From: a virus
Strand: one strand, 5' to 3'
Virus record (IMG/VR): IMGVR_UViG_3300027763_000102
Location: 1-41,763 of that record
Length of the DNA stretch: 41,763 nt
Positions 29,818 to 41,763 of the stretch are shown here, piece after piece (positions within the stretch are counted from its first letter, which is position 1; every line of letters begins with the position of its first letter). The position numbers and the translations under genes were made by a program. The notes under the pieces were generated by a model. That model was not told the DNA's origin and ran no database searches. It saw only the letters and a program-made list of their open reading frames with translations.

Positions 29818-30477
29818 TCAGAAGGGAATGTCATCAAAACTCTCGTCTTCCATCATTGGCGCTTCATGCTTTTTGACGGGTTCTGGAGTAGAGGTTTTTT
29901 TGCCTTGGCGCTTTTCCCATTCTGGTGACGCCGAAATCTTGGCCTTCAAGTGGTCGCTAAACTTATTGAACATTTCCATGTCAGGATCGTCAATCTTGAA
30001 TAACTCATTTAGATTGACCGCCTCAGGCAAGCCGTTCTGTTTGATCATGGCAGGCACTGGAGTGACGCCAGCAACATTGGTGTATGTTTTGCCGTCTTGG
30101 CCGGGGCGCTCAATCACGTTCAACATGCAGAATGCGCCAAGGACATTCTTCAGGTCAAACTTGCGCATCTCTTCCTGAGTGAAGGGCTTACCGCGCCATG
30201 ACTGCAAATCAAGACGCAAATTTGCTTTTTCTGACCATGAGAGAGTATAGTTTTTGAAGATTCCGAATGGGCGTCCATCGTTCATTTTGATGGCAGAGCC
30301 GTCGTCATGCATACCGTGGATTTCCCAACCGAGCATAATCTTGTGGAGGTACTTGACTTGACCCATGTACTCAGACTTCTGAGTGCCAAGATCAACGATT
30401 CGGTAGCACCGTGCAAGGTGCATACCCGCGGGGCAACGCTCGAAATTACCGCCCCTATCTTCTACATAAAAACTCAT
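29818..30477 (-). CDS. Phage ssDNA-binding-like replication protein
   Basis: 219 residues from the ATG at 30477 (AAAGGAAAAATC upstream); a much longer in-frame start would run through the divergent promoter and the repressor gene and is rejected. Conserved blocks PAGMHLARCYRIVDLGTQ, RPFGIFKNYTLSWSEKANLR and DLQSWRGKPFTQEEM mark a widespread early phage family annotated as replication or ssDNA-binding protein. The C-terminus MMEDESFDDIPF copies the acidic tip of bacterial SSB, which docks partner proteins. It is the first gene of the leftward operon and is probably made early and in quantity. Confidence 0.75.
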   Translation of the reverse strand: MSFYVEDRGGNFERCPAGMHLARCYRIVDLGTQKSEYMGQVKYLHKIMLGWEIHGMHDDGSAIKMNDGRPFGIFKNYTLSWSEKANLRLDLQSWRGKPFTQEEMRKFDLKNVLGAFCMLNVIERPGQDGKTYTNVAGVTPVPAMIKQNGLPEAVNLNELFKIDDPDMEMFNKFSDHLKAKISASPEWEKRQGKKTSTPEPVKKHEAPMMEDESFDDIPF

Positions 30478-30515
30478 GATTTTTCCTTTGTTAAACGTCC
30501 CGTAGGACAATGACC

Positions 30516-30556
30516 CGTTCATCGTGAACGTGTGAAGACTATAACACGAAATTAGA
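30516..30556 (-). promoter_or_regulatory. Leftward early promoter with operator and 5' hairpin
   Basis: Read on the minus strand: TCTAATTTCGTGTTATAGT (30556-30538) contains an extended -10 (TGT-TATAGT). Six bases later comes an A at 30531, the likely transcription start, then a stem CGTTC-ACGAT-GAACG (30530-30516) and GG. It serves the gene at 29818. The element matches those at 35081, 36995 and 40273. The -35 is weak, so activity may rest on the extended -10. Confidence 0.75.
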
Positions 30557-30592: not shown

Positions 30593-30793
30593 ATGAACCT
30601 AAAACAATACTTTAAGGATGAACCGTATGGCGCAAAAAAGGAGATGGCAGAACATCTCGGCATCACACAAACATGGCTTGGACTCTTAATTAGAAAGGCA
30701 CGAAGACCGTCACCTGAATTAGCAAAAAAAATAGATAAAGCCACACAAGGCTTAGTAAGTGCAAAAGAACTGCGACCCGATATTTTTAACTGA
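30593..30793 (+). CDS. YdaS/Cro-like HTH repressor
   Basis: 66 residues. The start at 30593 follows AAAGGAGG; an upstream in-frame start would read the ribosome binding site. The pattern LKQYFKDEPYGAKKEMAEHL, then LGITQTWLGLLIRKARRPSP and ELAKKIDKATQGLVSAKELR, is that of YdaS-type Cro proteins: a helix-turn-helix at about 16-38 and the RRPSPELA block. It would bind DNA as a dimer. It lies beside overlapping divergent promoters and is the best candidate for the protein that reads the 19-nt operator found four times in the window. Confidence 0.85.
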   Translation: MNLKQYFKDEPYGAKKEMAEHLGITQTWLGLLIRKARRPSPELAKKIDKATQGLVSAKELRPDIFN

Positions 30794-30823: not shown

Positions 30824-31639
30824 ATGAGAAAAATAGCTTTGAATGACATTCGTATCGATGGTGGTACACAAATCCGTAAGGAGATCGATCAAGCATTGAT
30901 TTATCAATATCTTGATTGCATGAAAAGGGGCGACGTTTTTCCAAAAATCAAGACCACATTTGATGGAGCAACGTATTGGCTAAACTCTGGCTTTCATCGT
31001 TACCATGCCTACAAATTGTTGGGCGTTAAGATGGTTGAGGTGGATTTTGAGATCGGCACCCTACAGGACGCTATCCTTGCGGCTTTGAAGTCCAATACTA
31101 AACACGGAAAAAACCTGACTATTGAAGACAAAGAAAACAAAGTCAAAATAGCTTTAGCTCTTGATGGCTACGACCAAAAAACGGATTACGAGCTATCCAA
31201 AATATGCGACGTGTCAGAGTCCTTTGTAGCTGGTGTACGCGATCCAGCTAAAAAGGAAAAGCAAAAGGCCGCCAAAGAGAAGCACATCAAGAAGAAAGCC
31301 AAGGAACTTACTGAAGCCGATGCTTCAAAAACTACTAGTCAGACTAGTAGTGAAAAAGCAACACCAAGGGAAACCCCTAACTTAAATGTTGGTGCTAATC
31401 CAGATGCCGCTGAATTGAGGGCTAACGAAATAGCATTTCAAGCTGACATGGAAGTCATGTACAAACTCTTGGAATCTAATGAGCCCTTGAAGTTGGCCCA
31501 CGAGGAAATCAAGCGCCTTAACCTTGCTTATGCTCAACTTGATACACGTTTTAAAGGCTTAACAAATGAAAAAAATCAGGCAATAAAAATGGTCAAGCAA
31601 CTTCAAAATCAACTTGATAAATTGAAAGCCAAAAAATGA
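30824..31639 (+). CDS. ParB-like N-terminal domain protein with coiled-coil tail
   Basis: 271 residues. The N-terminal ~90 residues follow the ParB/sulfiredoxin pattern: an LNDIRIDGGTQIR start, then LNSGFHRYHAYKLLG (53-67), the counterpart of the G-x-HR-x-x-A box. A helical region with a possible HTH (ELSKICDVSESFVAGVRDP) follows, then a very basic stretch, a linker encoding TSQTS, and a C-terminal coiled coil (about 200-271). It probably binds DNA in replication, regulation or segregation. Remarkably, the linker DNA is a copy of the 15-bp palindrome found elsewhere. Its stop overlaps the helicase start. Confidence 0.75.
   Translation: MRKIALNDIRIDGGTQIRKEIDQALIYQYLDCMKRGDVFPKIKTTFDGATYWLNSGFHRYHAYKLLGVKMVEVDFEIGTLQDAILAALKSNTKHGKNLTIEDKENKVKIALALDGYDQKTDYELSKICDVSESFVAGVRDPAKKEKQKAAKEKHIKKKAKELTEADASKTTSQTSSEKATPRETPNLNVGANPDAAELRANEIAFQADMEVMYKLLESNEPLKLAHEEIKRLNLAYAQLDTRFKGLTNEKNQAIKMVKQLQNQLDKLKAKK
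31331..31351. repeat. 15-bp palindrome copy 3 (21 bp of pairing) inside the ParB-like gene
   Basis: ACTACTAGTC-A-GACTAGTAGT, an inverted repeat of 10 bp per arm around one base. The central 15 bases are identical to the copies at 22987 and 23044. It encodes the TSQTS linker of the ParB-like protein. Confidence 0.85.
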
Positions 31640-33165
31640 CACAACTCCTAGCGCCAAGTGAGCGTGATGATGGATTTCCCAAGCCCCGTGAATTTCAACT
31701 GACTGCTCACAACGCCCTTCGCCAAGGGTTTCGTAACGGACACAAGAATCAGATCATCATGGCCCCTACGGGGGCTGGGAAGACCTATCTTGGTCTACGT
31801 ATTTGCAATGAGGCTATGCAACGTGGCAAACGCGCAGTGTTCTTGTGTGATCGCACTACCTTGATTGACCAAACTTCTGCTGTGGCTGATCGATATGGTC
31901 TATACAACCACGGCGTCATACAAGCCAAACACTACAGAAGGCGCCCTGACGAATTGCTTCAGATTGCATCCGTGCAGACTGTTGCTAAAAGAGGTTTTTG
32001 GCCACAAGTGGATGTTCTTGTTGTTGATGAAGCTCACACCACTTACAAGGCGTGGACTGAGTTTGCAATGAACACTAAGGCCGCTGTGATTGGACTATCA
32101 GCGACTCCATTTACTGCTGGGTTGGGCAAGATTTTTTCCAACTTGATTAACGCCACCACAATGCATGATTTGACTCAGCAAGGGGTATTGGTGCCCATGA
32201 GGATTTTTTCGTGCTCTAAGCCCGATATGACGGGTGCTGAGACCGCTGGTGGTGAGTGGACAGATAAAGCCGCAGAAGAGCGAGAACTACAAATTGTGGG
32301 TGACGTTGTGGCCGATTGGCAACGATTTGGTGATAACCGCAAAACAATTGTGTTTGGTGCAACGATTGCCCACTGCGAAGAGTTGTGTAAGCAATTTATC
32401 AATGCAGGCATTATGGCCGCGGTGTTTACGGCTGATACGACTAAAAGGGAGCGTGAAGACCTCCTCAAGGAGTACAGAAAGCCTACTAGCCATTTAAAAA
32501 TCTTGATCAGTGTTGAGGCCTTGGCAAAAGGTTTTGACGTGCCTGACGTAGGTTGTATCTGTGATGCGCGCCCTCTGCGTAAGTCACTGTCTACTGCGAT
32601 TCAGATGTGGGGACGTGGCCTGCGCTCTTCACCTGAGACTGGCAAGGTTGACTGCCACCTGCTGGACTTCAGCGGCAACATCATTCGTTTCTTTGACGAC
32701 TTCAACGAGATCTTTTTTAACGGTCTAGATTCATTGGATGCAGGCGACAAGTTGGACAAGACGATTCGTAAGGATGAAGAATACGAAGTCAAAGGATGCC
32801 CAAAATGTGGATACACGCCATTTAGCAAGCGGTGCATGGCTTGTGGATTTGAGAAGATATCAGTGCAACTTACCGAAGTGTTGCCCGGCGACATGAAGGA
32901 AATATTTATTGGTAAAGGTTCCGATAAAAAGAAGTTGGCTGATAACGCACAACACTTGTGGCATCAATTGGTGGCGTATGCAAAGCACCACAGCGCACCT
33001 GACGCGCAACAAGGTCGGGCATATCATTTATTTAAGAAGATGACTGGCCAAGATCCTACGTGGAAATTCTCCACAGCACCGCAAGTTGAAATTACAAAGA
33101 ACGTGTACAACAAAATTCAGCAGATGAACATTGCTTACAAACGTGGATTGGAGTCTAGAAAATGA
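31636..33165 (+). CDS. SF2 DEAD/DEAH helicase with C-terminal zinc ribbon
   Basis: 509 residues. Walker A is APTGAGKT (43-50), motif II DEAH (131-134), motif III SAT (155-157) and motif VI QMWGRGLRS (323-331). A zinc ribbon CPKC...CMAC uses C388, C391, C400 and C403. The protein resembles phage SF2 helicases of the UvsW/RecQ-adjacent and restriction-helicase-like group. It should unwind or remodel DNA during phage replication, with the TOPRIM primase encoded two genes further on. The start overlaps the ParB-like stop, and its own stop overlaps the next start by four bases. Confidence 0.9.
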   Translation: MTQLLAPSERDDGFPKPREFQLTAHNALRQGFRNGHKNQIIMAPTGAGKTYLGLRICNEAMQRGKRAVFLCDRTTLIDQTSAVADRYGLYNHGVIQAKHYRRRPDELLQIASVQTVAKRGFWPQVDVLVVDEAHTTYKAWTEFAMNTKAAVIGLSATPFTAGLGKIFSNLINATTMHDLTQQGVLVPMRIFSCSKPDMTGAETAGGEWTDKAAEERELQIVGDVVADWQRFGDNRKTIVFGATIAHCEELCKQFINAGIMAAVFTADTTKREREDLLKEYRKPTSHLKILISVEALAKGFDVPDVGCICDARPLRKSLSTAIQMWGRGLRSSPETGKVDCHLLDFSGNIIRFFDDFNEIFFNGLDSLDAGDKLDKTIRKDEEYEVKGCPKCGYTPFSKRCMACGFEKISVQLTEVLPGDMKEIFIGKGSDKKKLADNAQHLWHQLVAYAKHHSAPDAQQGRAYHLFKKMTGQDPTWKFSTAPQVEITKNVYNKIQQMNIAYKRGLESRK

Positions 33166-33671
33166 CGCATCTTTACAGACACTTTGATGCTGAAAATAAC
33201 TTAATGTATGTTGGAATTTCATTGAGTACGATCACGCGACTTGGTCAACACCAACAACACTCAAAATGGTTTAATGAAATTAAAAAAGTCACCATAGAGC
33301 ATTTTTCAACTAGACAAGATGCAATAGAGGCTGAAAAAAAAGCAATCAAAACTGAAAATCCAAAATACAACATTGCTTTGAGAAAAACTGTTAAAGAGGT
33401 TGCCACTGAAGAAAAATTAGCAATCAGGCATACAAACTTAACAACAAGGTTTGTTGAATATCGAGTTGCTTACAGACTTGATGAAATTAGAGATCTTGTA
33501 AACATGACTTCCAAGGAATTACAAAAACATGTTGATTGTGGAAATATATCTGTGTTTCATGTTGAAAGCAGACCATCTTGGAAAACTCAACAAATCAGAA
33601 TGATTCCAATGGTTAGTGGTTGGGCAATGATTGATTTTGTTCATTTTCTTGAGAGCAAGGGCGAGTTATGA
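33162..33671 (+). CDS. GIY-YIG-like nuclease with C-terminal HTH-like part
   Basis: 169 residues. The N-terminal ~75 residues fit the GIY-YIG fold: LYRHF (Y5) and YVGIS (Y16-G18) stand for the GIY and YIG elements, with R26 in TRLGQH, E56/E58 in the helix AIEAEKKAI and N70 in NPKYN. The C-terminal part YRVAYRLDEIRDLVNMTS followed by KELQKHVDCG looks like an excisionase-type HTH. It lies between helicase and primase with four-base overlaps on both sides, is visibly more AT-rich than both, and has a Lys/Asn/Ile-rich composition. This suggests a free-standing homing-type endonuclease that entered the operon. The exact activity is unproven. Confidence 0.7.
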   Translation: MTHLYRHFDAENNLMYVGISLSTITRLGQHQQHSKWFNEIKKVTIEHFSTRQDAIEAEKKAIKTENPKYNIALRKTVKEVATEEKLAIRHTNLTTRFVEYRVAYRLDEIRDLVNMTSKELQKHVDCGNISVFHVESRPSWKTQQIRMIPMVSGWAMIDFVHFLESKGEL

Positions 33672-34537
33672 CCTTTATCGATTTTGCCAGAGCCCATGGT
33701 GTGGACATCGATCCCTCACGTTTTTATGCGTCAGAGAAGATTAAGCGCTGTGGCACGGTAGACAAGCCTCGCTCAGGTAACGGCGCCTACTTCTGGGATG
33801 GCCAGCGCGGATGGGTGATGGATTGGTCAGGAGAGGCTAAGGTGATCTGGTTTGAGGATCCTAATGCCAACCCTTGGACTGACGAAGAAAAGCGCCTGTG
33901 GGCTTCAAAAAGGGCATCGGCAAGCACTGAGCAAGATAAGAGGTACCAGAATGCCGCTTTTGAGGCTGATGCGACTCTTCGTAGTGCTAAATACGACAAT
34001 CACCCCTACCTTGAGTACAAGGGATTTAAGGAGATGCGAGGGTTGGTTTTGGAGGACAAGCTGTTGATCCCTATGCGCAACGTGTCAACGAACACTTTGC
34101 AAGGGTATCAGTCGATTCGTTGGAACTTGGAAGAGCGCAAGTACGAGAAGAAAATGCTGACTGGCATGCGCGCAAAGAATGCTGTGATGTACCTTGGTGA
34201 TCGCAACTCTGAGGAGTGTTGGTTGGTTGAGGGTTTTGCGACTGGAATGTCGGTGCGTCATGCTCTACGCAGTGTGGGTATATCTGCGTCGGTGGTGATC
34301 TGTTTTAGTGCAAGTAACTTGGTGCAAGTATCTGATCAAATCAAAGGGAAAAGATTTGTTTTTGCAGATAACGATGAGAGCAAAACAGGTGAGAAGTGCG
34401 CAATTGCAACAGGCTTGCCATGGACAATGCCAGACACTGTGGGATGGGATGCAAATGATCTACATTTGAAGGACAGTGTATTTGCTGTTGTAGGGAAAAT
34501 GATGGAGTTGAGGCAAAGAGAAATGGTATACTCTTGA
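33668..34537 (+). CDS. TOPRIM-domain DNA primase (phage/plasmid type)
   Basis: 289 residues. The N-terminal ~130 residues resemble primase-associated regions (GNGAYFWDGQRGWVMDWSGE) without a complete zinc finger. The TOPRIM core is visible as WLVEGFATGMSVRHAL with E188, and FVFADNDESKTGE with D234 and D236. It would make primers at the phage fork and probably works with the helicase at 31636. No DNA polymerase gene is present in this window, so host polymerase is likely recruited. The gene ends the rightward replication operon and is followed by a long noncoding region. Confidence 0.8.
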   Translation: MTFIDFARAHGVDIDPSRFYASEKIKRCGTVDKPRSGNGAYFWDGQRGWVMDWSGEAKVIWFEDPNANPWTDEEKRLWASKRASASTEQDKRYQNAAFEADATLRSAKYDNHPYLEYKGFKEMRGLVLEDKLLIPMRNVSTNTLQGYQSIRWNLEERKYEKKMLTGMRAKNAVMYLGDRNSEECWLVEGFATGMSVRHALRSVGISASVVICFSASNLVQVSDQIKGKRFVFADNDESKTGEKCAIATGLPWTMPDTVGWDANDLHLKDSVFAVVGKMMELRQREMVYS

Positions 34538-34576
34538 CCCTCTGAGAAGTCGTGCTGAGGGACTGTAAACATCAGC

Positions 34577-34618
34577 ACCATCACAAATAAATGTTGATTA
34601 GTATTTATTTGTGTTGGT
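34577..34618. repeat. AT-rich long inverted repeat (possible cruciform)
   Basis: ACCA-T-CACAAATAAAT (34577-34592), a ten-base loop, and ATTTATTTGTG-T-TGGT (34603-34618) pair over 15 base pairs with one T-T mismatch. It begins 39 bases after the primase stop and ends six bases before a strong promoter. It is not followed by a T-run, so it is not a standard terminator. An origin or cruciform role is a hypothesis. Confidence 0.8.
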
Positions 34619-34623
34619 AAGTG

Positions 34624-34653
34624 TTGACACGTCTTGAGACGTCTTGATACAAT
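34624..34653 (+). promoter_or_regulatory. Strong sigma70-type promoter with operator in the spacer
   Basis: TTGACA (34624-34629), an 18-base spacer, and TACAAT (34648-34653) preceded by TGA as an extended -10. The spacer contains ACGTCTTGA twice, ten bases apart (34629, 34639), and the inverted repeat ACGTCT-TG-AGACGT (34629-34642). The predicted start is near A34660. It drives the ncRNA that follows. The repeats suggest a bound repressor or activator. Confidence 0.8.
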
Positions 34654-34659
34654 TCTAGC

Positions 34660-34779
34660 AAATGCAAGCGGGTGGAACTTCTTGCAAGAAAGCCGTTAAG
34701 TCAGACTCCGACCCCTTTGGGGTGCGTGTCCTTCAAAAGAGGATATGGTTCCACCGGGGTCTGTCTTAACGGTTTTTTT
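34660..34779 (+). ncRNA. Predicted ~120-nt structured RNA with pseudoknot and terminator
   Basis: From the predicted start to a T7 run there is no credible coding frame. Four pairings are visible. TGCAAG (34663-34668) pairs with CTTGCA (34681-34686). GGTGGAAC (34671-34678) pairs with GTTCCACC (34748-34755). CCGTTAAGTCAGAC (34693-34706) pairs with GTCTGTCTTAACGG (34759-34772), with one T-T mismatch. ACCCC (34711-34715) pairs with GGGGT (34719-34723). The second and third interleave, so they form a pseudoknot or loop-loop contact. Seven T residues end the unit. It may be a regulatory RNA or a replication-related transcript. I recognise no known RNA family. Confidence 0.7.
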
Positions 34780-35070
34780 CGTTTTACTTCCCGTACTCCG
34801 CACGATAGCAAGCACCCCAGTCGTGGTGGCGCGGAAGGAAAGCGTACACGGTATGCCGTAAGGCTAGGGGGCAGTTCCCGAATAATCCGTGCGACTGGTC
34901 GAATCATCAAGTCGGGGGCAGAACTAACGTTCGCATGATGATCCTGCATTGACAGGGGTGAAGCACCTTCCCTCTCTACTCCTTGAATGGGGTAGGGGGG
35001 TCTTTGGGTGAAAGGAATGATAGGGCGAAAAAGGGGGGTCGGGAAATTTTGGGTCATGTCCCTTTTTTTT
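34780..35070. other. Noncoding region with short inverted repeats and G-runs
   Basis: No convincing gene on either strand; the two overlapping open frames here have compositions typical of non-coding DNA. It contains possible stems: CGCACG/CGTGCG (34799-34804 with 34888-34893), ACGG-TATG-CCGT (34848-34859), CGACT/AGTCG (34892-34914), and CTACTCC/GGGGTAG (34976-34995). From 34989 to 35053 there are seven runs of three to six G. I found no tRNA cloverleaf. A second structured RNA or part of an origin is possible. Confidence 0.5.
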
Positions 35071-35080
35071 GTTTGCAAAC

Positions 35081-35120
35081 TCTAATTTTGTGTTAGACTG
35101 TGTTCACCACAATAAGTGGG
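35081..35120 (+). promoter_or_regulatory. Early promoter/operator with 5' hairpin (copy at 35081)
   Basis: TCTAATTTTGTGTTAGACT (35081-35099) contains the inverted halves TCTAAT/GTTAGA and an extended -10 (TGT-TAGACT). Six bases later A35106 is the likely start, followed by the stem CCAC-AATAA-GTGG (35107-35119) and GGTTAAC. TTTGCA 16 bases upstream of the -10 may be the -35. It serves the gene at 35138. Confidence 0.8.
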
Positions 35121-35137
35121 TTAACAAGGAGAATGAA

Positions 35138-35323
35138 ATGAATATGTTCGATGATTTTGAGGCTGAGTTGCTAAAGCAATTCAAAGCCATCACTCCAGAA
35201 CAGCGTGCTGAGGAAGACCGTCTTCGCAAGATTCAGCGCGAATGGGATGCCAAGCACACTGCGATTGAAACTGATGCAGATCGCGCTGACACTGAAGAGT
35301 ATCCAGTGGAGGACGACGAATGA
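35138..35323 (+). CDS. Small acidic early protein
   Basis: 61 residues from the ATG at 35138 (AAGGAGAATGAA upstream); a longer frame from 35069 would run through the promoter and is rejected. Helical and strongly acidic (FDDFEAELLKQFKAITPEQR, then an Asp/Glu-rich end). It is the first gene behind the operator-hairpin leader, so it is probably expressed at once after infection. Its stop overlaps the next start by four bases. Function unknown; acidic early proteins often target host factors, but nothing specific is visible. Confidence 0.65.
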   Translation: MNMFDDFEAELLKQFKAITPEQRAEEDRLRKIQREWDAKHTAIETDADRADTEEYPVEDDE

Positions 35324-35538
35324 ACATCGATCAGAAACGTTTTTACATCTTTGACTGCAACGGCAAGATGATTGGCAATCCCTTTGGCTACAAGACTCAC
35401 AGTACTGCTGAAGCGCAGACTAGTCGCAAGGGTGCCACTGTGTACAGCCAGATCTGGCATGCGTATCACAAAGAAAAACTTGTAAATCCAAACAGTAACT
35501 TAATTTATGTAATCAAAGCAGGAGGATGCATCGCATGA
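35320..35538 (+). CDS. Small early hypothetical protein
   Basis: 72 residues with RFYIFDCNGKMIGNPFGYKT at the start, then THSTAEAQTSRKGATVYSQI; mixed alpha/beta composition. It overlaps the previous stop (ATGA) and belongs to the same early operon. No family recognised. Confidence 0.6.
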   Translation: MNIDQKRFYIFDCNGKMIGNPFGYKTHSTAEAQTSRKGATVYSQIWHAYHKEKLVNPNSNLIYVIKAGGCIA

Positions 35539-35822
35539 ATCCGATGTCACAGGAAGATTTTAATATGGCCGTTATTGTCCATGCTCGCCGACGTTCGGTG
35601 TTTATGGAAGAAGGTCTTTGCGAAGATCAAGCATGGGACTTAGCAGAGCAAATGTTTGAGCGCGACCGCGAAGGGCTCGACGACCGCCGTGTTTGCTTTG
35701 AATGCAAAAACTACGTAAACAAAAAGTGTAAAGCGATACTTGACAGAAAAGGCCAACCAACAATGCAGTTGAGGTTCATTCTGCAACGGTGCCCACAGTT
35801 CTCACTCAAAGGTAAAAAATGA
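35535..35822 (+). CDS. Small cysteine-rich, probably zinc-binding early protein
   Basis: 95 residues from the ATG at 35535, nine bases after AGGAGG; the ATG at 35526 abuts that ribosome binding site and is less likely. The N-terminal half is helical (MEEGLCEDQAWDLAEQMFER). The C-terminal half has CFECKNYVNKKC and a final cysteine in LQRCPQF, a likely zinc site. The start overlaps the previous stop, and the stop overlaps the RuvC-like start by four bases. Function unknown. Confidence 0.6.
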   Translation: MNPMSQEDFNMAVIVHARRRSVFMEEGLCEDQAWDLAEQMFERDREGLDDRRVCFECKNYVNKKCKAILDRKGQPTMQLRFILQRCPQFSLKGKK

Positions 35823-36280
35823 AACGCATAGGAATAGACCCCGGCCTCTCTGGCGCCATTGTTGTTCTGCAAGACGACACACCGATTGAATGGATGGCCA
35901 TGCCTACCATGAAGATTGGATCAGCAAACAGAGTGAATGCATCTGCCTTGGCGGCGTTTATTCGCACGCACATCTACGGCGATGAAAAAATTGTTGCTTA
36001 CGTGGAGTTGGTCGCAAGTATGCCCAAGCAAGGTGTAGCGTCCATGTTCTCGTTTGGGCACTCAGCAGGGGTCATACAAGGCGTTTTGGGCGCGTTTGAG
36101 ATACCAGTGACTATGGTAACCCCAGCCATGTGGAAAAAGCGTTCAGGGCTCATTGGAATGGATAAGGATGCATCACGAGTAAAGGCAATCCAGATGTGGC
36201 CACACTGGCGTGATTTGGACAAGAAGGGTAAGGGTCAGGCCTTGGCTGACGCCGCATTAATTGCAAAGTACGGACTATGA
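35819..36280 (+). CDS. RuvC-like Holliday-junction resolvase
   Basis: 153 residues. The RNase H-fold resolvase signature is clear: GIDPGLSGA with D7, VAYVELVASMPKQGVASMFS with E63, then a helix with FSFGHSAG, TPAMWKK, and the end GQALADAALIAKYGL with D144. It would cut branched recombination or replication intermediates before packaging. In the last motif the usual D-x-G-R-x-D spacing seems altered: a Gly (about 139) stands where the third acidic residue is normally found. Start and stop are tightly packed with neighbours. Confidence 0.85.
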   Translation: MKRIGIDPGLSGAIVVLQDDTPIEWMAMPTMKIGSANRVNASALAAFIRTHIYGDEKIVAYVELVASMPKQGVASMFSFGHSAGVIQGVLGAFEIPVTMVTPAMWKKRSGLIGMDKDASRVKAIQMWPHWRDLDKKGKGQALADAALIAKYGL

Positions 36281-36316
36281 GCGGCTGGCGCAAACGACAA
36301 ATACAGGAGAAGCAAA

Positions 36317-36658
36317 ATGAATCAGAAGGACATCAACGACGCAGTGGACTTTTTGTACACCCACGGCAAAAAGTACGCAGAAGCAAAAGCCCACAAGGGA
36401 TACCTCGACAACTACACGAAAGCATTGATTGCATCGCTGTCGATAAAGTTCATAGCAGACGGCATGGCCAAGTCGATGGCACAAGCTGAAGCAATGGCGT
36501 ATGCCGATGAGTCCTACGATGTACACATACGTGGCCTTAAAGAGGCTGTAGAGGCCGAGGAAGGCCTCAAATGGGCTTTGACCAGTGCAGAGTCCCGTAT
36601 CGACGTGTGGCGCTCTCAGGAGGCCTCTAATCGCACCATGGACAGGGCGGCGGCATGA
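36317..36658 (+). CDS. Conserved helical phage protein (WRSQEASNR family)
   Basis: 113 residues, almost all helical. The end ALTSAESRIDVWRSQEASNR is the signature of a common small phage protein found between resolvase and HNH-type genes; function unknown. CAGGAG precedes the ATG. Its stop overlaps the next start by four bases. The steady neighbourhood with recombination genes suggests an accessory to DNA processing. Confidence 0.7.
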   Translation: MNQKDINDAVDFLYTHGKKYAEAKAHKGYLDNYTKALIASLSIKFIADGMAKSMAQAEAMAYADESYDVHIRGLKEAVEAEEGLKWALTSAESRIDVWRSQEASNRTMDRAAA

Positions 36659-36927
36659 ACGGCAACTACAACAAGAATGAGCGCAGATGGGTAGCATTGG
36701 TCAAAGAACAATCATGCTCTGTTTGTGGCACCGAAGGCCCGTCTGACGCGCATCACATTAAGCAAGGCATGCACTACACGGTGGTGGCTTTGTGTAAGTC
36801 ATGCCATCAGGGAAGCAAGATGGGCTGGCACGGGGAGAAAGTGGCGTGGCGTATAGCAAAGATGGAAGAGATCGACGCCCTCAACGTCACCGTATCAAAC
36901 GTATTTACTAGTCTGACTAGTAACTAG
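36655..36927 (+). CDS. Ref-like HNH endonuclease (RecA-dependent nuclease family)
   Basis: 90 residues. CSVCG (C21, C24), SDAHHIKQGMHYTVVALC with H33-H34, then CKSCHQG (C47, C50, H51) and MGWHGEK (H59) match the Ref family of RecA-dependent HNH nucleases. It would nick DNA in RecA-bound displacement loops and help recombination. The C-terminus is unusual: the last codons (FTSLTSN) are formed by a copy of the 15-bp palindrome, which ends just before the stop. Confidence 0.8.
   Translation: MNGNYNKNERRWVALVKEQSCSVCGTEGPSDAHHIKQGMHYTVVALCKSCHQGSKMGWHGEKVAWRIAKMEEIDALNVTVSNVFTSLTSN
36905..36923. repeat. 15-bp palindrome copy 4 at the end of the Ref-like gene
   Basis: TTACTAGTC-T-GACTAGTAA: the central 15 bases are the exact reverse complement of the copies at 22987, 23044 and 31334. 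It encodes TSLTS at the extreme C-terminus and overlaps the stop region. Confidence 0.85.
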
Positions 36928-36994
36928 TTTGTATTCAAAACAGTATTAGGGTTTGTCCTAATAAAAATAAATGAAAAAAGACTTCACAAAAGAA

Positions 36995-37035
36995 TCTAAC
37001 TTCGTGTTAGAATTCTTTCACCGCAACGTTAGCGG
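36995..37035 (+). promoter_or_regulatory. Early promoter/operator with 5' hairpin (copy at 36995)
   Basis: TCTAACTTCGTGTTAGAAT (36995-37013) has perfect inverted halves TCTAAC/GTTAGA and an extended -10 (TGT-TAGAAT). TTCACA 19 bases upstream may be a weak -35. Six bases after the -10 comes A37020, then the stem CCGC-AACGTTA-GCGG (37021-37035) and GGTTTAAC. It serves the gene at 37058. Confidence 0.85.
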
Positions 37036-37057
37036 GTTTAACTTAAAGGAAATCATC

Positions 37058-37375
37058 ATGACAACAGTAGCAACAGAAGTTCAAGCAGTAGCAACAGTCG
37101 AGTCACTGCTTAACCCCATCGACCAACTCTCTGTGTTGGATCGTCAACAAAAAGGTTTGGCTGTTCAAGTCAAGAACCTCAAAGACACTATCGCCAACAC
37201 ATACGGCGAAGGCAAGCACCGCGGCGAGAAGTACGGTGTTCGCGTAACCATCGAGAACCGCAAGGGCTCCATCGACTTAGATGCTTTGTTGGCTCACTTC
37301 GGTATCACTGCCGAGCAAGCAGAGCAGTTCCGTGGCGACTCTATCGCTGTGATTAAAGTTTCAGCAACTGTTTAA
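37058..37375 (+). CDS. Small early phage protein (YGEGKHRGEKYGV family)
   Basis: 105 residues from the ATG at 37058 (AAAGGAAATCATC upstream); an upstream frame would read the promoter. The N-terminal ~50 residues are helical; NTYGEGKHRGEKYGVRVTIE is a conserved block seen in many phage early proteins of unknown role, followed by LLAHFGITAEQAEQF. First gene after the operator-hairpin leader. Confidence 0.65.
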   Translation: MTTVATEVQAVATVESLLNPIDQLSVLDRQQKGLAVQVKNLKDTIANTYGEGKHRGEKYGVRVTIENRKGSIDLDALLAHFGITAEQAEQFRGDSIAVIKVSATV

Positions 37376-37385
37376 GGGGATTAAC

Positions 37386-37577
37386 ATGAACGAAGAAATC
37401 CAAACTGTTATCTTCACGGAAGAAAATGTACGCATCAGCGTTGATGAATATAACGAAGGTGTGTGGTTGTCATTGCAAGGGCATGGCGCCAGCATGTACA
37501 CAACATTGACCATTGAAGAGGCCAATCAGATGTTGGCTGGCTTGCAAAAAGTTTTGAACAAAGAGGTGACAGCATGA
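37386..37577 (+). CDS. Small early hypothetical protein
   Basis: 63 residues of mixed beta/alpha composition (FTEENVRISVDEYNEGVWLS, then TIEEANQMLAGLQKVLN). A GGGGATTAAC leader precedes the ATG, and the stop overlaps the next start by four bases. No family recognised. Confidence 0.6.
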   Translation: MNEEIQTVIFTEENVRISVDEYNEGVWLSLQGHGASMYTTLTIEEANQMLAGLQKVLNKEVTA

Positions 37578-37957
37578 ACGCAGGAACACAAACAGGCAGT
37601 CTGGTCAATCACTTGTACAGCCGCATGACCATCGGCGAGCCTGAGCCTACAGTGGGCATGGGCGTGACTATGTTGTCGTGGACTGACCGCGACGCAGGCA
37701 CCATCGTCGAGGTAAACACAAAGAAGCGCTACATTGCCGTCACTGAGGACAGCAAGCGCCGCATCGACAACAACGGCATCAGCGAATCACAGGAGTACGA
37801 GTACACCTCTGTGATGGATGGCCACCGCTACTACTACCGTAAGGACAAAAAAGGCCAATGGCGCCGTTGTTATCACAATGACAATGGTCGTTTGATATAC
37901 GGCACTGGCGGCTTAACTTTAGGACACCGAGAGTCCTACTACGACTTTTCTTTTTAA
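37574..37957 (+). CDS. Conserved beta-rich protein (PTVGMGVTMLSWTDR family)
   Basis: 127 residues. PTVGMGVTMLSWTDRDAGTI with VEVNTKKRYIAV and the end LTLGHRESYYDFSF form a pattern found in many phages and some bacterial genomes, probably a small beta-barrel. Function unknown. The start overlaps the previous stop by four bases. Confidence 0.65.
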   Translation: MNAGTQTGSLVNHLYSRMTIGEPEPTVGMGVTMLSWTDRDAGTIVEVNTKKRYIAVTEDSKRRIDNNGISESQEYEYTSVMDGHRYYYRKDKKGQWRRCYHNDNGRLIYGTGGLTLGHRESYYDFSF

Positions 37958-37967
37958 GGAAAAAGAA

Positions 37968-38045
37968 ATGAGACCACACCCCATCCTACAAACGATTGGG
38001 GTGATCGCTTTGATCATCCTAGCCTATTATTTAGCAAAGAATTGA
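37968..38045 (+). CDS. Tiny single-span membrane protein (25 aa)
   Basis: Read directly: MRPHPILQTIGVIALIILAY followed by YLAKN and a stop. One hydrophobic span fills the centre, with charges at both ends. AAGGAAAAAG lies upstream, ten bases after the previous gene, and the next gene follows after seven bases. Role unknown. Confidence 0.6.
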   Translation: MRPHPILQTIGVIALIILAYYLAKN

Positions 38046-38052
38046 GGACATC

Positions 38053-38337
38053 ATGGAAAAGAAAGAACTCTCCAGCTTGGCGCGCCAAATACTGGCCAAA
38101 AACGATGCCGTAAGTTTCTACACTCAACAAGAGTTTGATGACAGTCTGGCATTAGCAAAAGCAGAGATCATGGCGGTGGCCATCGAGACTAGCAAGAGAG
38201 CAGTCTTTATTGAGCGCAAGGAGTGCGCTAGATTGGTCTCAGAGCTTGCAAGTCAAGAAGACAATGGTGAGGTAGCCACAGCCCTTGTTAACGCCGCTAG
38301 AGCGATTTACAACCGTATTCCAAGCCAAATGCAATGA
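38053..38337 (+). CDS. Small helical protein with ERKECA motif
   Basis: 94 residues, all-helical. The helix RAVFIERKECARLVSELA is related to the ER(E/K)-x-C helices in the proteins at 28586 and 40486; VNAARAIYNRI at the C-terminus recalls the ALIRARGNT end of the latter. GAGGACATC precedes the ATG. These appear to be members of a small phage early-gene family of unknown function. Confidence 0.6.
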   Translation: MEKKELSSLARQILAKNDAVSFYTQQEFDDSLALAKAEIMAVAIETSKRAVFIERKECARLVSELASQEDNGEVATALVNAARAIYNRIPSQMQ

Positions 38338-38350
38338 ACGTTTTCCCGTC

Positions 38351-38400
38351 TTGGATTTGACATAAAGTTAATCTAGGATTTGGTTGCAACAATCGGTTGC
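38351..38400 (+). promoter_or_regulatory. Possible promoter with 5' hairpin but no operator
   Basis: TTGGAT (38351-38356), a 17-base spacer, and TAGGAT (38374-38379). Six bases later a stem GCAAC-AATCG-GTTGC (38386-38400) followed by GG copies the leader geometry of the promoters at 35081, 36995 and 40273, but the 19-nt operator is absent. It would serve the gene at 38419. The -10 and -35 are poor, so this is tentative. Confidence 0.45.
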
Positions 38401-38418
38401 GGCACACTGGGAAAAATC

Positions 38419-38643
38419 ATGTACACATTGGAAATTAGCATTGGTTGGTTGGAAGAAGAGACCGTGACAGTGACGACTAGTGACTTCACGAAGATACAAG
38501 CAATACAGCAGTTTTTTGAATTCATGGAAGAAAACGGCTGGGACGCTGAATATGAAATCGTTGAGTCTCTTGATCTTGAAGATGAAGAAGAAACTGAAGA
38601 AGATACTGAAGAAGATACTGAAGAAGAAGAAATCGTTGAGTAA
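38419..38643 (+). CDS. Small protein with extremely acidic tail
   Basis: 74 residues from the ATG at 38419; an in-frame GTG-type extension would cover the leader hairpin. The N-terminal ~50 residues are mixed beta/alpha (YTLEISIGWLEEETVTVTTS); the last ~25 are almost only Glu, Asp and Thr (EETEEDTEEDTEEEE), encoded by a GAAGATACTGAA repeat. The acidic tail may mimic DNA or bind basic proteins, which some anti-host phage proteins do; that is speculation. Confidence 0.6.
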   Translation: MYTLEISIGWLEEETVTVTTSDFTKIQAIQQFFEFMEENGWDAEYEIVESLDLEDEEETEEDTEEDTEEEEIVE

Positions 38644-38648
38644 ATGGA

Positions 38649-38680
38649 TGGGGCTCACTTGATCAGCAAGTAGAGCCCCA
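38649..38680. terminator. Long hairpin between converging genes
   Basis: TGGGGCTC-ACTTG on the left pairs with CAAGT-A-GAGCCCCA on the right around ATCAG, with one bulged A. It lies five bases after the stop at 38643 and covers the end of the leftward gene at 38655. There is no T-run on either side, so it may stop or protect the 3' ends of both converging transcripts without being a classic terminator. Confidence 0.6.
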
Positions 38681-38798
38681 CATTACTGAATGCGTAGCCG
38701 CCGTATACGATGGCCATATACGGGTTTCCCTTTAGCAACTGTTCCACCGCAATATATGCGTAGATTGCCCCCGTAAGAACAATTAACCAAGCACTCAT
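38655..38798 (-). CDS. Small two-span membrane protein (47 aa)
   Basis: Read directly on the minus strand: MSAWLIVLTGAIYAYIAVEQ, then LLKGNPYMAIVYGGYAFSNV and GLYLLIK. Two hydrophobic segments around a short basic turn. The GYAFSNVGLY end recalls small membrane proteins of other phages. CAGGAT lies upstream of the ATG. It is the last gene of the leftward unit, after the metallophosphoesterase. Confidence 0.65.
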   Translation of the reverse strand: MSAWLIVLTGAIYAYIAVEQLLKGNPYMAIVYGGYAFSNVGLYLLIK

Positions 38799-38829
38799 AT
38801 AGTTTTATCCTGTATTGCCCTTATAGGGG

Positions 38830-39813
38830 CTAAAACTCGCTCACATTAATTACCTCGCCCCTGAACTGTATACAGTCCTCTGAAAAGGCATGTACTAATT
38901 CTGGCCACAATAGCTCACCATTAAAAAAAGTCAGCACCGCAAAGCCTGACCTGTGATTGTTTGGGTTTAATTCAGCGTATGTAAATTGTGGGCCATCAGG
39001 CTCTGCCAATGTTCCGGTGTCAACGCCATACCTCACGCCATTATAATCATTGAACGGCGTAACTTTTAAGGAATGTAAGTGCCCACTAACAACTGACACC
39101 CCCGCTTGGACAGTATTATTGTGGGTAGCATGAATTCCCCCCTTATATCGGTGCTTGACAATTACTTTAGGGGTGGGCCAACAAGCCCAGCAGAACTCCC
39201 ACTCAGGAATGTGGTCAGTTATCTTAAATCCAAGTACATCTTTGTACTGCGGCGCGTGTTGTGCAAGTCTATTTGCAAATCGTGCGTCATGGTTCCCCCA
39301 CGTATGAATGAGGCGCACGTTATGGCGTTCTTCCTTAGCGCGTTCTTCAATCTCGCCAAGAGCCGCCTTGCATGCATTTAATTCTTGGATAACTGTTGCA
39401 GGCGCCTCATCGGTAACGTCATGGCGACTAATAGACGCGCCGTCAAATGAGTCTCCGTTGGCAATCAGGGCATGAGGGGATAGCGTTTCAATTGCCCATA
39501 AAAGACCTTTATAGGCTGTCGAACGCTCTGTAGGAAGGAAATGCGCATCTGAAAAAACAATGACCGTGGCATCGAGTAATCCTAAATCAATTTGTTTTAA
39601 CGGAGAGTAAGAGGCTTGTCGTGGATCGTAATAACTACTTCTGGGATCGGCACTGAAAAGTCTTATTCCGTATGAGGCTTCAAGATTGCGTCTTCTATTC
39701 TGAACATTACGAGTCGCAATACCGAGAATTCTTGCCAATTTTGCGGCAGATTGGTGCTGTCCCCACAGAGCAATAAATTCATCATCTGTGCAAGTTTGGT
39801 TATGTGCGCCCAT
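38830..39813 (-). CDS. HTH-metallophosphoesterase
   Basis: 327 residues. An N-terminal HTH (about 24-43, AKLARILGIATRNVQNRRRN) is followed by a calcineurin-like metallophosphoesterase with all main motifs: FSDAHF (D89, H91), NGDSFDG (D121), GNHDAR (173-178), a later HATHNN, and GHLHS (244-248). Two metal ions would be bound and a phosphodiester or phosphomonoester cut; the natural substrate cannot be told. Similar HTH-MPE proteins are frequent in phage accessory regions. The start overlaps the HExxH gene by 14 bases, so the two are translated together. Confidence 0.85.
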   Translation of the reverse strand: MGAHNQTCTDDEFIALWGQHQSAAKLARILGIATRNVQNRRRNLEASYGIRLFSADPRSSYYDPRQASYSPLKQIDLGLLDATVIVFSDAHFLPTERSTAYKGLLWAIETLSPHALIANGDSFDGASISRHDVTDEAPATVIQELNACKAALGEIEERAKEERHNVRLIHTWGNHDARFANRLAQHAPQYKDVLGFKITDHIPEWEFCWACWPTPKVIVKHRYKGGIHATHNNTVQAGVSVVSGHLHSLKVTPFNDYNGVRYGVDTGTLAEPDGPQFTYAELNPNNHRSGFAVLTFFNGELLWPELVHAFSEDCIQFRGEVINVSEF

Positions 39814-40174
39814 TGATATCCTTTAAGAGTTGTTGCTCTAGTAAGTTGATAATTCGGTGCTCTTCCTTCTCAATCAACTCTGGTGACGAGCGAGGATCTT
39901 GAGCCGCTGTCATAAGGTCATGAAGTAATACATGTAATACCTCATGCAATGCAGTAGCGTCTAAGGATTCGTGGGTTATCTTTTCTGCGCCAAAGTCACC
40001 AAGGCGGTAGGTGGCCAATCGGGCGCCCTCATTGAACTCAACTGATGCCATGGCACCCTTGGCAGGTTTGAGTCCCTTTTCAATTCTCCAATCACCAAGG
40101 TGAAGAATTGACTGCCATTTCTTCACACATAGTGCAAAGAACTCAGCGTCTTGCGTAGTAGGAATGTTAGGCAT
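39800..40174 (-). CDS. HExxH zincin-like metalloprotease-fold protein
   Basis: 124 residues. The helix TALHEVLHVLLHDL contains HEVLH (77-81), the zinc-binding motif of zincin peptidases; an acidic residue further on (E100 or E103-E105) could be the third ligand. The N-terminal part (LGDWRIEKGLKPAKGAMASV) is a small beta sheet, as in SprT-like or phage-specific zincins. It is the first gene of the leftward accessory unit. Proteolytic activity is inferred from the motif; the target is unknown. Confidence 0.7.
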   Translation of the reverse strand: MPNIPTTQDAEFFALCVKKWQSILHLGDWRIEKGLKPAKGAMASVEFNEGARLATYRLGDFGAEKITHESLDATALHEVLHVLLHDLMTAAQDPRSSPELIEKEEHRIINLLEQQLLKDINGRT

Positions 40175-40183
40175 ATCAACACC

Positions 40184-40218
40184 TTATTTAAACTTTGTGA
40201 CCTTTTTATTTAAACTTT
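40184..40218. repeat. 13-bp direct repeat upstream of the leftward unit
   Basis: TTATTTAAACTTT occurs at 40184-40196 and 40206-40218, 22 bases apart (two helical turns), between the HExxH gene start and the rightward early promoter. Each copy contains the palindrome TTTAAA. A tandem operator for the leftward genes is a reasonable reading. Confidence 0.7.
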
Positions 40219-40260
40219 ACACATAAACAAAAATATTTTTAAAAATAACATAAAAAAGTG

Positions 40261-40311
40261 TTGACTACACAATCTAACTTTGTGTTAGAATTACTTCACT
40301 GCAATAAGCAG
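40261..40311 (+). promoter_or_regulatory. Early promoter/operator with 5' hairpin (copy at 40273)
   Basis: TTGACT (40261-40266), 19 bases, then TAGAAT (40286-40291) inside the element TCTAACTTTGTGTTAGAAT (40273-40291) with perfect TCTAAC/GTTAGA halves. Six bases after the -10 comes A40298, then the stem CTGC-AATAA-GCAG (40299-40311) and GTTTATT. It serves the gene at 40331 and has the best -35 of the set. Confidence 0.85.
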
Positions 40312-40330
40312 GTTTATTTAGGAGATCAAA

Positions 40331-40489
40331 ATGACTTTATTTGCTTTAGAAGAACACTTGATGATGTTGTTGGTCGAGGACAAGTTGTGTTTTGAAGAGG
40401 GCGATTGGGATCGCTTAGAAAGAATTCGTTTGGCCATCGACGACACAAGAGACCAAATCGCCAAACTGCAAAAAAGGGTAAACAAATGA
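40331..40489 (+). CDS. Small helical early protein (52 aa)
   Basis: Read directly: MTLFALEEHLMMLLVEDKLC, then FEEGDWDRLERIRLAIDDTR and DQIAKLQKRVNK. An amphipathic helical hairpin with a coiled-coil end. TAGGAGATCAAA precedes the ATG, and it lies directly behind the operator-hairpin leader. The stop overlaps the next start by four bases. Function unknown. Confidence 0.65.
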   Translation: MTLFALEEHLMMLLVEDKLCFEEGDWDRLERIRLAIDDTRDQIAKLQKRVNK

Positions 40490-40686
40490 TACATACAGAC
40501 GAAGACGATGAGTTTGAGCGCATCGAGCGCGAAAGCAAAATGAAAGGCCAGCCCTATCATTGGGAGGCCGATGCCATCAAAGCCGCTGTGCTGATTGAGC
40601 GTGAGGCGTGTGCAAGGTTGTGTGATGAAAACATCGGGTTTGAAAATTATTTGTCAGCACTTATTCGAGCAAGGGGAAACACATGA
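40486..40686 (+). CDS. Small early protein with EREACA motif
   Basis: 66 residues from the ATG at 40486, overlapping the previous stop (ATGA); a longer frame starts inside the previous gene. The helix AVLIEREACARLCDENI and the end SALIRARGNT are typical of a common small phage protein of unknown role, related to the genes at 28586 and 38053. Confidence 0.65.
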   Translation: MIHTDEDDEFERIERESKMKGQPYHWEADAIKAAVLIEREACARLCDENIGFENYLSALIRARGNT

Positions 40687-40967
40687 TTATCAAACGCAAC
40701 ATGGCAATCGACAGCCTGACAAAGGTCTGCGAGGAAAGTCTAGCGCTCATCAAGCAATTGATTGACGCTGACAATGAAACCTACGGGCAAGGATATGAGG
40801 ATGGCATGGCGGCTCAGGCTAAGGTGCAACAGACACTCAAGCCTTGGGTGGAACTGACGGATGTAGAGATCGTAGACATTATGGATGTGGAGTTAACTAC
40901 GCAAACTACTGAACACTTTGCACTTTGCCAAGCCATTGAAGCCAAACTCAAGGAGAAAAACAGATGA
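40683..40967 (+). CDS. Small phage protein (WVELTDxEI type)
   Basis: 94 residues: a helical N-terminus (SLTKVCEESLALIKQLIDAD), then KPWVELTDVEIVDIMDVEL and a final helix CQAIEAKLKEKNR. The W-x-x-LTD-x-EI block followed by an AIEAKLKEKN end is common among small phage early proteins. Four-base overlaps at both ends. Function unknown. Confidence 0.65.
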   Translation: MIIKRNMAIDSLTKVCEESLALIKQLIDADNETYGQGYEDGMAAQAKVQQTLKPWVELTDVEIVDIMDVELTTQTTEHFALCQAIEAKLKEKNR

Positions 40968-41197
40968 ATTCTCAGGAAATAGATGACATGATGCGCGGCC
41001 ATAATCCGCAAGAGTCCACACTGAGCAAAGTATGGATTGGGACATGGTTCATTGTATTTTTAATCGTGTGCGTAATGGCACCTGATATCTTTAATATATC
41101 TACAGAGGAAACAACTCATGGCAACAGCAAAGAAAACACCAGTCAAGACAGCAACCAAGGCCTCCGCAAAGAAAGTAGTGGAGAAGGCATCAAATAA
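40964..41197 (+). CDS. Small single-span membrane protein
   Basis: 77 residues. One membrane span (about 23-43, VWIGTWFIVFLIVCVMAPDI), N-terminal part acidic, C-terminal ~30 residues polar and low in complexity. It overlaps the previous stop by four bases but also overlaps the next gene by 80 bases in another frame. The polar tail may therefore exist only because the frame happens to stay open. Function unknown. Confidence 0.5.
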   Translation: MNSQEIDDMMRGHNPQESTLSKVWIGTWFIVFLIVCVMAPDIFNISTEETTHGNSKENTSQDSNQGLRKESSGEGIK

Positions 41198-41390
41198 GCC
41201 CTTAGCCGCGCCAAAAGCAGAGGAGCGTACATTCTCCATGCCTGTAGAGGTACAAGAGTGGATAGAGCGCGCATCAAGCACCATGAAGCACCAAGCAAAC
41301 CAGATTGCTACGCTCAAGGAAGAATTAGCACAACTTAAGGCGTATAAGAAGTTCGCCACCAACAAAATACAAGGGATGAGCTATGAGTGA
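41118..41390 (+). CDS. Histone-H1-like N-terminus with coiled coil
   Basis: 90 residues. The first ~35 residues are Lys/Ala-rich (AKKTPVKTATKASAKKVVEK), like H1-type DNA-binding tails; then EEWIERASSTMKHQ-like helix and a coiled coil (ANQIATLKEELAQLKAYKKF). GAGGA lies nine bases before the ATG. It could bind DNA or be a small accessory of packaging, as the terminase-like gene begins shortly after. Overlaps both neighbours. Confidence 0.6.
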   Translation: MATAKKTPVKTATKASAKKVVEKASNKPLAAPKAEERTFSMPVEVQEWIERASSTMKHQANQIATLKEELAQLKAYKKFATNKIQGMSYE

Positions 41391-41661
41391 ATACGAAGGA
41401 GGCGAATGCCAAATAAAGCACGCCGCGAAAGAAGTAAAACTGAACCTACCCAAACACGACTGCAACATCAAATTCTTTAATGGTGATGGAGACGAAATAG
41501 GAGTACTGGACTTCAATGGCCCCGGACTATCATTCGAGGGGATAGCAGACCTGAGCGCCATCACATTCATGGATTGCATAAGCAAAGTGTTTCAATCTCG
41601 CCTCAAAGAAGAGTACGACAGAGGGTACAAAGAAGGCAAGACTTCACAAAACCCCAAATGA
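41383..41661 (+). CDS. Small conserved phage protein
   Basis: 92 residues of beta-rich character: KEVKLNLPKHDCNIKFFNGD, then EIGVLDFNGPGLSFEG and a C-terminal helix EEYDRGYKEGKTSQ. The block DFNGP-x-x-x-FEG is seen in other phage early proteins. Function unknown. It starts eight bases before the previous stop. Confidence 0.6.
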   Translation: MSEYEGGECQIKHAAKEVKLNLPKHDCNIKFFNGDGDEIGVLDFNGPGLSFEGIADLSAITFMDCISKVFQSRLKEEYDRGYKEGKTSQNPK

Positions 41662-41715
41662 AGAGTTAAACTTCCAGTTATGCGCTGAAACTATTGCGCG
41701 AGAAAGGACTGGAAT

Positions 41716-41763
41716 ATGACCGAAACGACAAGAAAAGTAGGAAGACCCATGGGTAAGCTCCAT
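41716..41763 (+). CDS. Start of a truncated gene, possibly small terminase
   Basis: Sixteen codons, MTETTRKVGRPMGKLH, then the window ends. AAAGGACTGGAAT lies upstream. A basic N-terminus with a (K/R)-x-GRP motif is frequent at the start of small terminase subunits and of other HTH proteins. Position after the early genes and, on a circular map, before the capsid gene at the window start would suit terminase. Too short to be sure. Confidence 0.4.
   Translation, partial: MTETTRKVGRPMGKLH

What the first reader, a model, noticed from the sequence alone, without database searches (positions are those of the whole stretch)
40286..40311. Early transcripts would begin with a covarying 5'-terminal hairpin
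Exactly six bases after each -10 comes A, then a short stem: CCAC/GTGG (35107), CCGC/GCGG (37021), CTGC/GCAG (40299), and CGTTC/GAACG on the minus strand (30530-30516). Loops are AATAA twice, AACGTTA and ACGAT, and G(G)T follows in each case. The second and third stem positions change as pairs (C-G, T-A, G-C; A-T, G-C, T-A), so structure rather than sequence is kept. Position at the very 5' end suggests protection from 5'-end dependent RNA decay, a signal for a phage or host RNA-binding protein, or translation control. I know no description of such a leader.
Basis: partly seen in the sequence, partly recalled or inferred. Interest (0 to 1): 0.85.

Follow-up and report, generated by a model that had tools for sequence, protein, structure and literature searches.

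The report
Hairpin capping phage early transcripts
A family of freshwater phages of betaproteobacteria appears to start its early messages with a tiny RNA hairpin whose shape, not sequence, has been kept by evolution; it probably shields the front end of the message from the host's RNA-decay enzymes.

Summary
Four promoters in the window carry a 17-bp inverted-repeat operator overlapping the -10. Each is followed, six bases after the -10, by A and a 4-5 bp hairpin. In 48 related phage loci, picked by the neighbouring Cro/YdaS-type repressor and not by the hairpin, stems start almost only 7-8 nt after the -10 (67 and 62 of 119 sites; about 5 expected by chance). At one orthologous promoter, 39 of 39 distinct sequences form a perfect stem, with at least seven stem sequences and at least 15 stem changes on a helicase tree. 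Non-Watson-Crick pairs are G·U in the transcribed sense and never A·C, so the structure is RNA. The stem's distance from the inferred start is fixed and its distance from the Shine-Dalgarno is not. Two operator-bearing promoters, including the repressor's own, lack it throughout. The best explanation is a 5'-terminal cap hairpin blocking RppH/RNase E 5'-end-dependent decay: one unpaired base, and a paired pyrimidine at +2, where RppH wants two to three unpaired bases and a purine at +2. Single stabilising 5' hairpins are known (ompA, papA, T7 gene 10). A covarying hairpin built into a phage's repressor-controlled promoters was not found described. Start sites and stability are untested.

The parts
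40273..40289 (+). 17-bp inverted-repeat operator TCTAACTTTGTGTTAGA, overlapping the extended -10 (TGTTAGAAT; hexamer 40286-40291)
   Evidence: same element at three other promoters in the window and 142 times in 48 related loci against 0 in shuffled sequence
40298..40311 (+). inferred transcript start A40298 and 5'-terminal hairpin CTGC-AATAA-GCAG, followed by GUUUA, SD and ATG 40331 (52-aa ORF)
   Evidence: model R1, 25.9 bits; fold leaves SD open
36995..37011 (+). operator TCTAACTTCGTGTTAGA, -10 TAGAAT 37008-37013
37020..37035 (+). inferred start A37020 and hairpin CCGC-AACGTTA-GCGG before the ORF at 37061
   Evidence: (33.2 bits)
35081..35097 (+). operator TCTAATTTTGTGTTAGA, -10 TAGACT 35094-35099
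35106..35119 (+). inferred start A35106 and hairpin CCAC-AATAA-GTGG before the ORF at 35138
   Evidence: (23.5 bits)
30540..30556 (-). operator TCTAATTTCGTGTTATA of the leftward promoter P_A, divergent from the repressor gene; -10 TATAGT 30543-30538
30516..30531 (-). inferred start A30531 and hairpin CGTTC-ACGAT-GAACG of P_A, the orthologous site with 39/39 perfect stems
30496..30509 (-). second leader hairpin UGUCC-UACG-GGACG between the cap hairpin and the SD, specific to P_A
   Evidence: present in most relatives with some pair changes, missing in about six where the first hairpin is kept
30593..30793 (+). Cro/YdaS-type HTH protein, presumed repressor of these operators; its own promoter carries the operator but no hairpin
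   Evidence: PF15943, E 4e-11; HTH_3 weaker; 32-39% identity to annotated Cro proteins; 9/9 repressor promoters without hairpin
29818..30477 (-). first gene of the leftward operon driven by P_A (219 aa, function unknown, PHROG 862); an exonuclease-like gene (PHROG 298) lies downstream at 28806-29594

Best explanation
In this group of betaproteobacterial phages the host RNA polymerase starts the repressor-controlled early transcripts at a purine, nearly always A, placed one base before a short hairpin. The finished mRNA thus has a single unpaired 5' nucleotide, then C2 paired at the foot of a 4-5 bp stem with a 4-7 nt loop, then an open A/U-rich stretch with the Shine-Dalgarno. The hairpin acts in cis as a cap. 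The 5' triphosphate end is not single-stranded enough for RppH (which needs at least two unpaired nucleotides and reads the second base, preferring a purine) or for the 5'-sensor pocket of RNase E, so early mRNAs escape 5'-end-dependent decay. Shown here: the hairpin's existence, position relative to the -10, covariation, RNA polarity and promoter specificity. Inferred: the start site, the repressor-operator pairing, early timing and the protective effect.
For: (1) Structure is conserved, not sequence. At the orthologous promoter P_A, 39/39 distinct sequences read without selecting for a hairpin have a perfect stem exactly 7 nt after the -10. When 3' arms are exchanged between sequences a mean of 20 and a maximum of 28 pair. 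On a helicase tree at least 15 stem changes occurred, all leaving it paired. Over 42 mixed sites the covariation score is 0.83, against 0.31 for shuffles and at most 0.12 when slid. (2) RNA polarity: the only non-Watson-Crick pairs are G-U, never A-C. (3) 5'-terminal position: the base before the stem is A 77 / G 2 of 85, and the bases before it are mostly pyrimidine; the -10-to-stem distance varies 6-9 yet a purine immediately precedes the stem in all but six. (4) The distance to the SD is loose (1-12, or 19-34 nt in P_A). (5) +2 is C in 79 of 85 and is paired; E. coli RppH needs two, preferably three, unpaired 5' nucleotides and prefers a purine at the second (PMC7144940; B. subtilis RppH, PMC4227774 and PMC3997798). 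(6) The loop is free apart from a leading A. (7) The phage T7 gene 10 leader stem-loop raised reporter output 1.5-3-fold and mRNA abundance in the betaproteobacterium Cupriavidus necator (PMC6146998).
Against: No mapped starts or half-lives exist for these phages. Stems are short (median fold energy about -4.4 kcal/mol) and of strikingly uniform size; pure protection would tolerate longer stems. The foot pair C-G, the leading A of the loop and the downstream GUUUA are conserved in sequence, hinting at a further constraint. RppH specificity is known from E. coli and B. subtilis, not from these hosts. The stem sits in the initially transcribed region, so a transcriptional role is not excluded.
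Confidence: 0.6

Rival explanations
1. The hairpin is the mark read by a phage- or host-encoded RNA-binding protein that picks out early mRNAs for stabilisation, translation or antitermination (functionally like N/boxB or a coat-protein operator).
For: Several bases outside the variable stem are conserved: A at +1, C-G foot pair, loop beginning with A (74/85), G then UUUA after the stem. All plus-strand copies and P_A share the same small size.
Against: Loop length 4-7 and positions 2-4 of the loop vary freely, unlike boxB or MS2-type sites; no candidate RNA-binding gene was found among the annotated neighbours; no Rfam family matches.
Confidence: 0.17
2. The hairpin serves translation: it keeps the 5' end from pairing with the Shine-Dalgarno or forms a standby site for the ribosome.
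For: In the window leaders the SD is single-stranded in the minimum-energy or centroid fold; 6-8 nt stem-SD spacing is the commonest; conserved A/U-rich GUUUA.
Against: Stem-SD distance ranges from 1 to 34 nt and P_A inserts a whole second hairpin, while the 5' spacing stays fixed.
Confidence: 0.12
3. The hairpin acts during transcription, for example on promoter escape, on an initial pause, or as a put-like element modifying RNA polymerase.
For: It lies wholly in +2 to about +16 at a fixed distance from the -10.
Against: Stem sequence is free to change and the known put elements are longer, sequence-conserved two-hairpin RNAs (own knowledge); two operator promoters of the same phages do without it.
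Confidence: 0.08
4. It is a DNA element, a second operator half or cruciform, rather than RNA.
For: It lies next to a palindromic repressor operator.
Against: A DNA-binding protein would not accept the many stem sequences; G-U but no A-C pairs (nine against none over all operator sites; five against none at P_A) gives the structure the polarity of the transcript.
Confidence: 0.02

Closest known systems
T7 gene 10 (phi10) 5'-terminal stem-loop (Mertens et al. 1996, cited in PMC6146998)
   Same: Phage mRNA beginning with a hairpin ahead of the SD; shown to stabilise mRNA, also in a betaproteobacterium (PMC6146998).
   Different: T7 RNA polymerase late promoter, one sequence; here host-type promoters under a Cro-like operator, several copies per genome, 4-5 bp stems of changing sequence with covariation.
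ompA and papA 5' stem-loops and RppH/RNase E 5'-end protection (Bouvet and Belasco 1992; Emory et al. 1992; Bricker and Belasco 1999; listed in PMC3997798)
   Same: Stem close to the 5' end; protection depends on pairing at the terminus and not on sequence.
   Different: Single host genes; here a repeated leader module in one phage regulon. No decay data here.
Lambda nut boxB / N-type sites
   Same: Short hairpin (about 5 bp, 5-nt loop) in phage early leaders.
   Different: boxB has a fixed GNRA-like loop and lies beside boxA, away from the 5' end (own knowledge); here loops vary and the hairpin is at the start.
Cro-type regulation in SfV, SfIV and phiEt88
   Same: Distantly related small HTH proteins annotated Cro or repressor (32-39% identity).
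   Different: Their operators and leaders were not examined here; no hairpin is implied.

Membership tests
5'-terminal mRNA-stabilising stem-loop (ompA/papA/T7 gene 10 kind) | Stem conserved as structure rather than sequence | tested here: met
   39/39 at P_A with at least seven stem sequences; covariation 0.83 vs 0.31 shuffled; arm-swap and tree tests
[quoted passage not shown]
   Start inferred from the -10 spacing (6-9 nt) and a lone purine before the stem in 79/85; no mapped transcripts
5'-terminal mRNA-stabilising stem-loop (ompA/papA/T7 gene 10 kind) | Lengthens mRNA half-life through RppH/RNase E | not testable with these tools
   Needs decay measurements; literature precedent only (PMC6146998, PMC7144940)
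N-type boxB / nut site | Fixed GNRA-like loop | tested here: not met
   Loop 4-7 nt, only the first base conserved
Any Rfam RNA family | Match at gathering score | tested here: not met
   No match in the window
Cro/YdaS-type HTH repressor (neighbouring gene) | Profile match to PF15943 above its cut-off | tested here: met
   43 bits against cut-off 30
Cro/YdaS-type HTH repressor (neighbouring gene) | Binds the 17-bp operators | not testable with these tools
   Inferred from the operator lying in the divergent control region in nearly all relatives

The most novel reading that the evidence does not exclude
The hairpin is a class mark: a phage factor, or a property of the infected cell's decay machinery, distinguishes hairpin-capped early phage mRNAs from hairpin-less repressor and host mRNAs, so that the lytic regulon is sorted after transcription as well as at the operator.
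Probability: 0.2. Interest if true: 0.82.

Novelty: new variant of a known kind. Interest (0 to 1): 0.62.

Why it matters
5'-end protection of mRNA is known from single genes and engineered leaders. Here evolution appears to have run the stem-swap experiment many times, at several promoters of dozens of phages, keeping one unpaired base and a paired C at +2. If the protective role is right, RppH/RNase E 5'-end decay is a selective pressure on phages of freshwater betaproteobacteria and phage promoters encode the counter-measure. Hairpin-less operator promoters in the same genomes are built-in controls. The leaders are also compact ready-made mRNA stabilisers.

Tried and rejected
Chance or palindrome-by-composition: rejected by shuffles and arm swaps. 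DNA operator or cruciform: rejected by stem diversity and the G-U-only wobble. Linkage to the operator: rejected, since the repressor promoter (9/9) and the promoter of the gene beginning M(D/E)(Q/K)LEEFHYF (all 15 read as lacking it) carry the operator without hairpin. Exact-pattern scan of bacterial genomes: 0 hits. Acidovorax phage AP1, one of only two GenBank phage records with nucleotide similarity to the window's 28000-41763 part: no match to the model in the 30.6 kb read. NAD capping because of +1A: set aside, as -1 is a pyrimidine whereas NAD capping favours a purine there (own knowledge). The count is biased because its sequences were chosen for having stems; the unselected P_A set was used for the main claim. 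MAFFT alignment A3 was not used for pair counts because unequal loops put arms out of register. L008, a near-copy of L028/L045, lacks the hairpin at one promoter; natural deletion or assembly error was not resolved.

Full report
What is there. The window is an uncultivated virus record of 41,763 bases. A megablast of its part 28000-41763 found only two similar GenBank phage records: MW202545 (Manatee Spring siphovirus) and Acidovorax phage AP1. Its presumed repressor, a 66-aa Cro/YdaS-type HTH protein at 30593-30793, has 72-95% identical relatives in 48 viral loci and two more in betaproteobacterial metagenome bins. The host is therefore most likely a betaproteobacterium; this is inference from bins that may simply contain phage contigs.

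The promoter. Four sites in the window carry TCTAAYTTYGTGTTAKA, a 17-bp inverted repeat whose right half forms the extended -10 (TGTTAGAAT / TGTTATAGT). In the 48 loci it occurs 142 times with up to two mismatches, against none in shuffled sequence. It usually stands a short distance upstream of an SD and start codon, and it occurs in the divergent control region next to the repressor gene. That the HTH protein binds it is inferred.

The hairpin. In relatives selected only for the repressor, stems of four or more pairs start at offset 9 or 10 after the operator (7-8 nt after the -10) in 67 and 62 of 119 distinct sites; shuffles give about 5, and no other offset is comparably enriched. At one orthologous promoter, P_A, leftward and divergent from the repressor, the leader could be read at 39 distinct sequences without asking for a hairpin; all 39 have a perfect 4-5 bp stem 7 nt after the -10. 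Stem types are CGTTC/GAACG, CGGTC/GACCG, CGGTC/GATCG, CGATC/GATCG, CGGC/GCCG, CGGCC/GGTCG and CAGCA/TGCTG; CGGTT/AACCG turned up later in L131. Exchanging 3' arms among the sequences leaves a mean of 20 (maximum 28) of 39 paired. On a tree of the neighbouring helicase the whole stem changed at least 15 times, and pairs 2, 3 and 4 at least 1, 9 and 6 times, with no broken pair at those positions; phage mosaicism makes the number approximate. For 42 mixed sites the covariation score is 0.83 against 0.31 for shuffles and at most 0.12 for slid partners, with the caveat that these sites were chosen for having a stem.

It is RNA. With Watson-Crick pairs alone 34/39 P_A sites pair; allowing G-U brings 39/39; allowing A-C brings no more than 34. 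Over all operator sites there are nine with one G-U and none with A-C. A DNA element would not show this strand polarity.

It is at the 5' end. The base before the stem is A (77) or G (2) in 85 sites, and the positions from -2 to -8 before it are 73-100% pyrimidine. The -10-to-stem distance ranges from 6 to 9, but a purine directly before the stem is kept. A purine 6-8 nt after a -10 and behind a pyrimidine is where sigma-70-type polymerase starts (established knowledge), so one unpaired nucleotide is the best inference. The distance from stem to SD is loose: 1-12 nt, or 19-34 nt where P_A inserts a second hairpin, typically GUCC-UACG-GGAC. That second hairpin is missing in about six relatives; the first never is.

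It is promoter-specific. The repressor's own promoter (9/9) and the promoter of the gene beginning M(D/E)(Q/K)LEEFHYF carry the operator but no hairpin. A 30-position covariance model finds the four window sites and no others, and 114 hits in 850 kb of relatives; of those inspected, nearly all stand directly behind the same promoter element.

Mechanism. E. [quoted passage not shown] B. subtilis RppH likewise needs two unpaired, PMC4227774 and PMC3997798). The leaders offer one unpaired base, and a second base that is C in 79 of 85 and paired. Loops are free in sequence apart from a leading A. This is what a cis-acting 5' cap needs, and less than a protein-binding site would need. A phage 5' stem-loop (T7 gene 10) raised reporter output 1.5-3-fold and mRNA abundance in the betaproteobacterium Cupriavidus necator (PMC6146998). 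I put 0.6 on this mechanism. Rivals are a protein mark (0.17), translation (0.12), transcription (0.08) and DNA (0.02).

Known or new. 5'-terminal stabilising hairpins are known for ompA, papA and T7 gene 10. A hairpin built into the repressor-controlled promoters of a phage group, with extensive covariation, was not found in nine literature searches of an open-access library nor in Rfam; subscription papers could not be searched. Hence: new variant of a known kind.

In passing. The non-coding stretch after the primase gene (34621-35040) is conserved in most relatives. Its first part, 34655-34782, folds at -60 kcal/mol (z -7.1), ends in a terminator, and shows 15 pairs with two-sided changes across 14 phages. 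This candidate structured RNA has no Rfam match and deserves its own study.

Noticed in passing
window 34621-34793: Conserved structured RNA candidate after the primase gene: promoter-like TTGACA...TACAAT, then a 128-nt fold at -60 kcal/mol (z -7.1) with a long closing stem and two inner hairpins, ending in a T-run terminator; 15 pairs with two-sided changes in 14 phages; no Rfam match.
   Followed up: partly
window 34780-35065: Further conserved, apparently non-coding 250-300 nt between that RNA and the operator promoter at 35081; function unknown.
   Followed up: no
window 30496-30509 (minus strand): Second leader hairpin UGUCC-UACG-GGACG in P_A; stem changes in relatives (GGTC/GACC, TGCC/GGCA, TGTCG/CGACG) and absent in about six.
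   Followed up: partly
promoter of the gene beginning MDQLEEFHYF, e.g. L123 14056, L136 6942: An operator-bearing promoter that never has the hairpin in any relative; a natural control.
   Followed up: partly
L008 2874 (minus) versus L028 and L045: Near-identical promoter in which the hairpin is missing; natural deletion or assembly error.
   Followed up: no
window 31333-31349 and 36906-36922: 17-bp near-perfect palindromes TACTAGTCAGACTAGTA and TACTAGTCTGACTAGTA, exact reverse complements of each other; possibly a second regulator's site.
   Followed up: no
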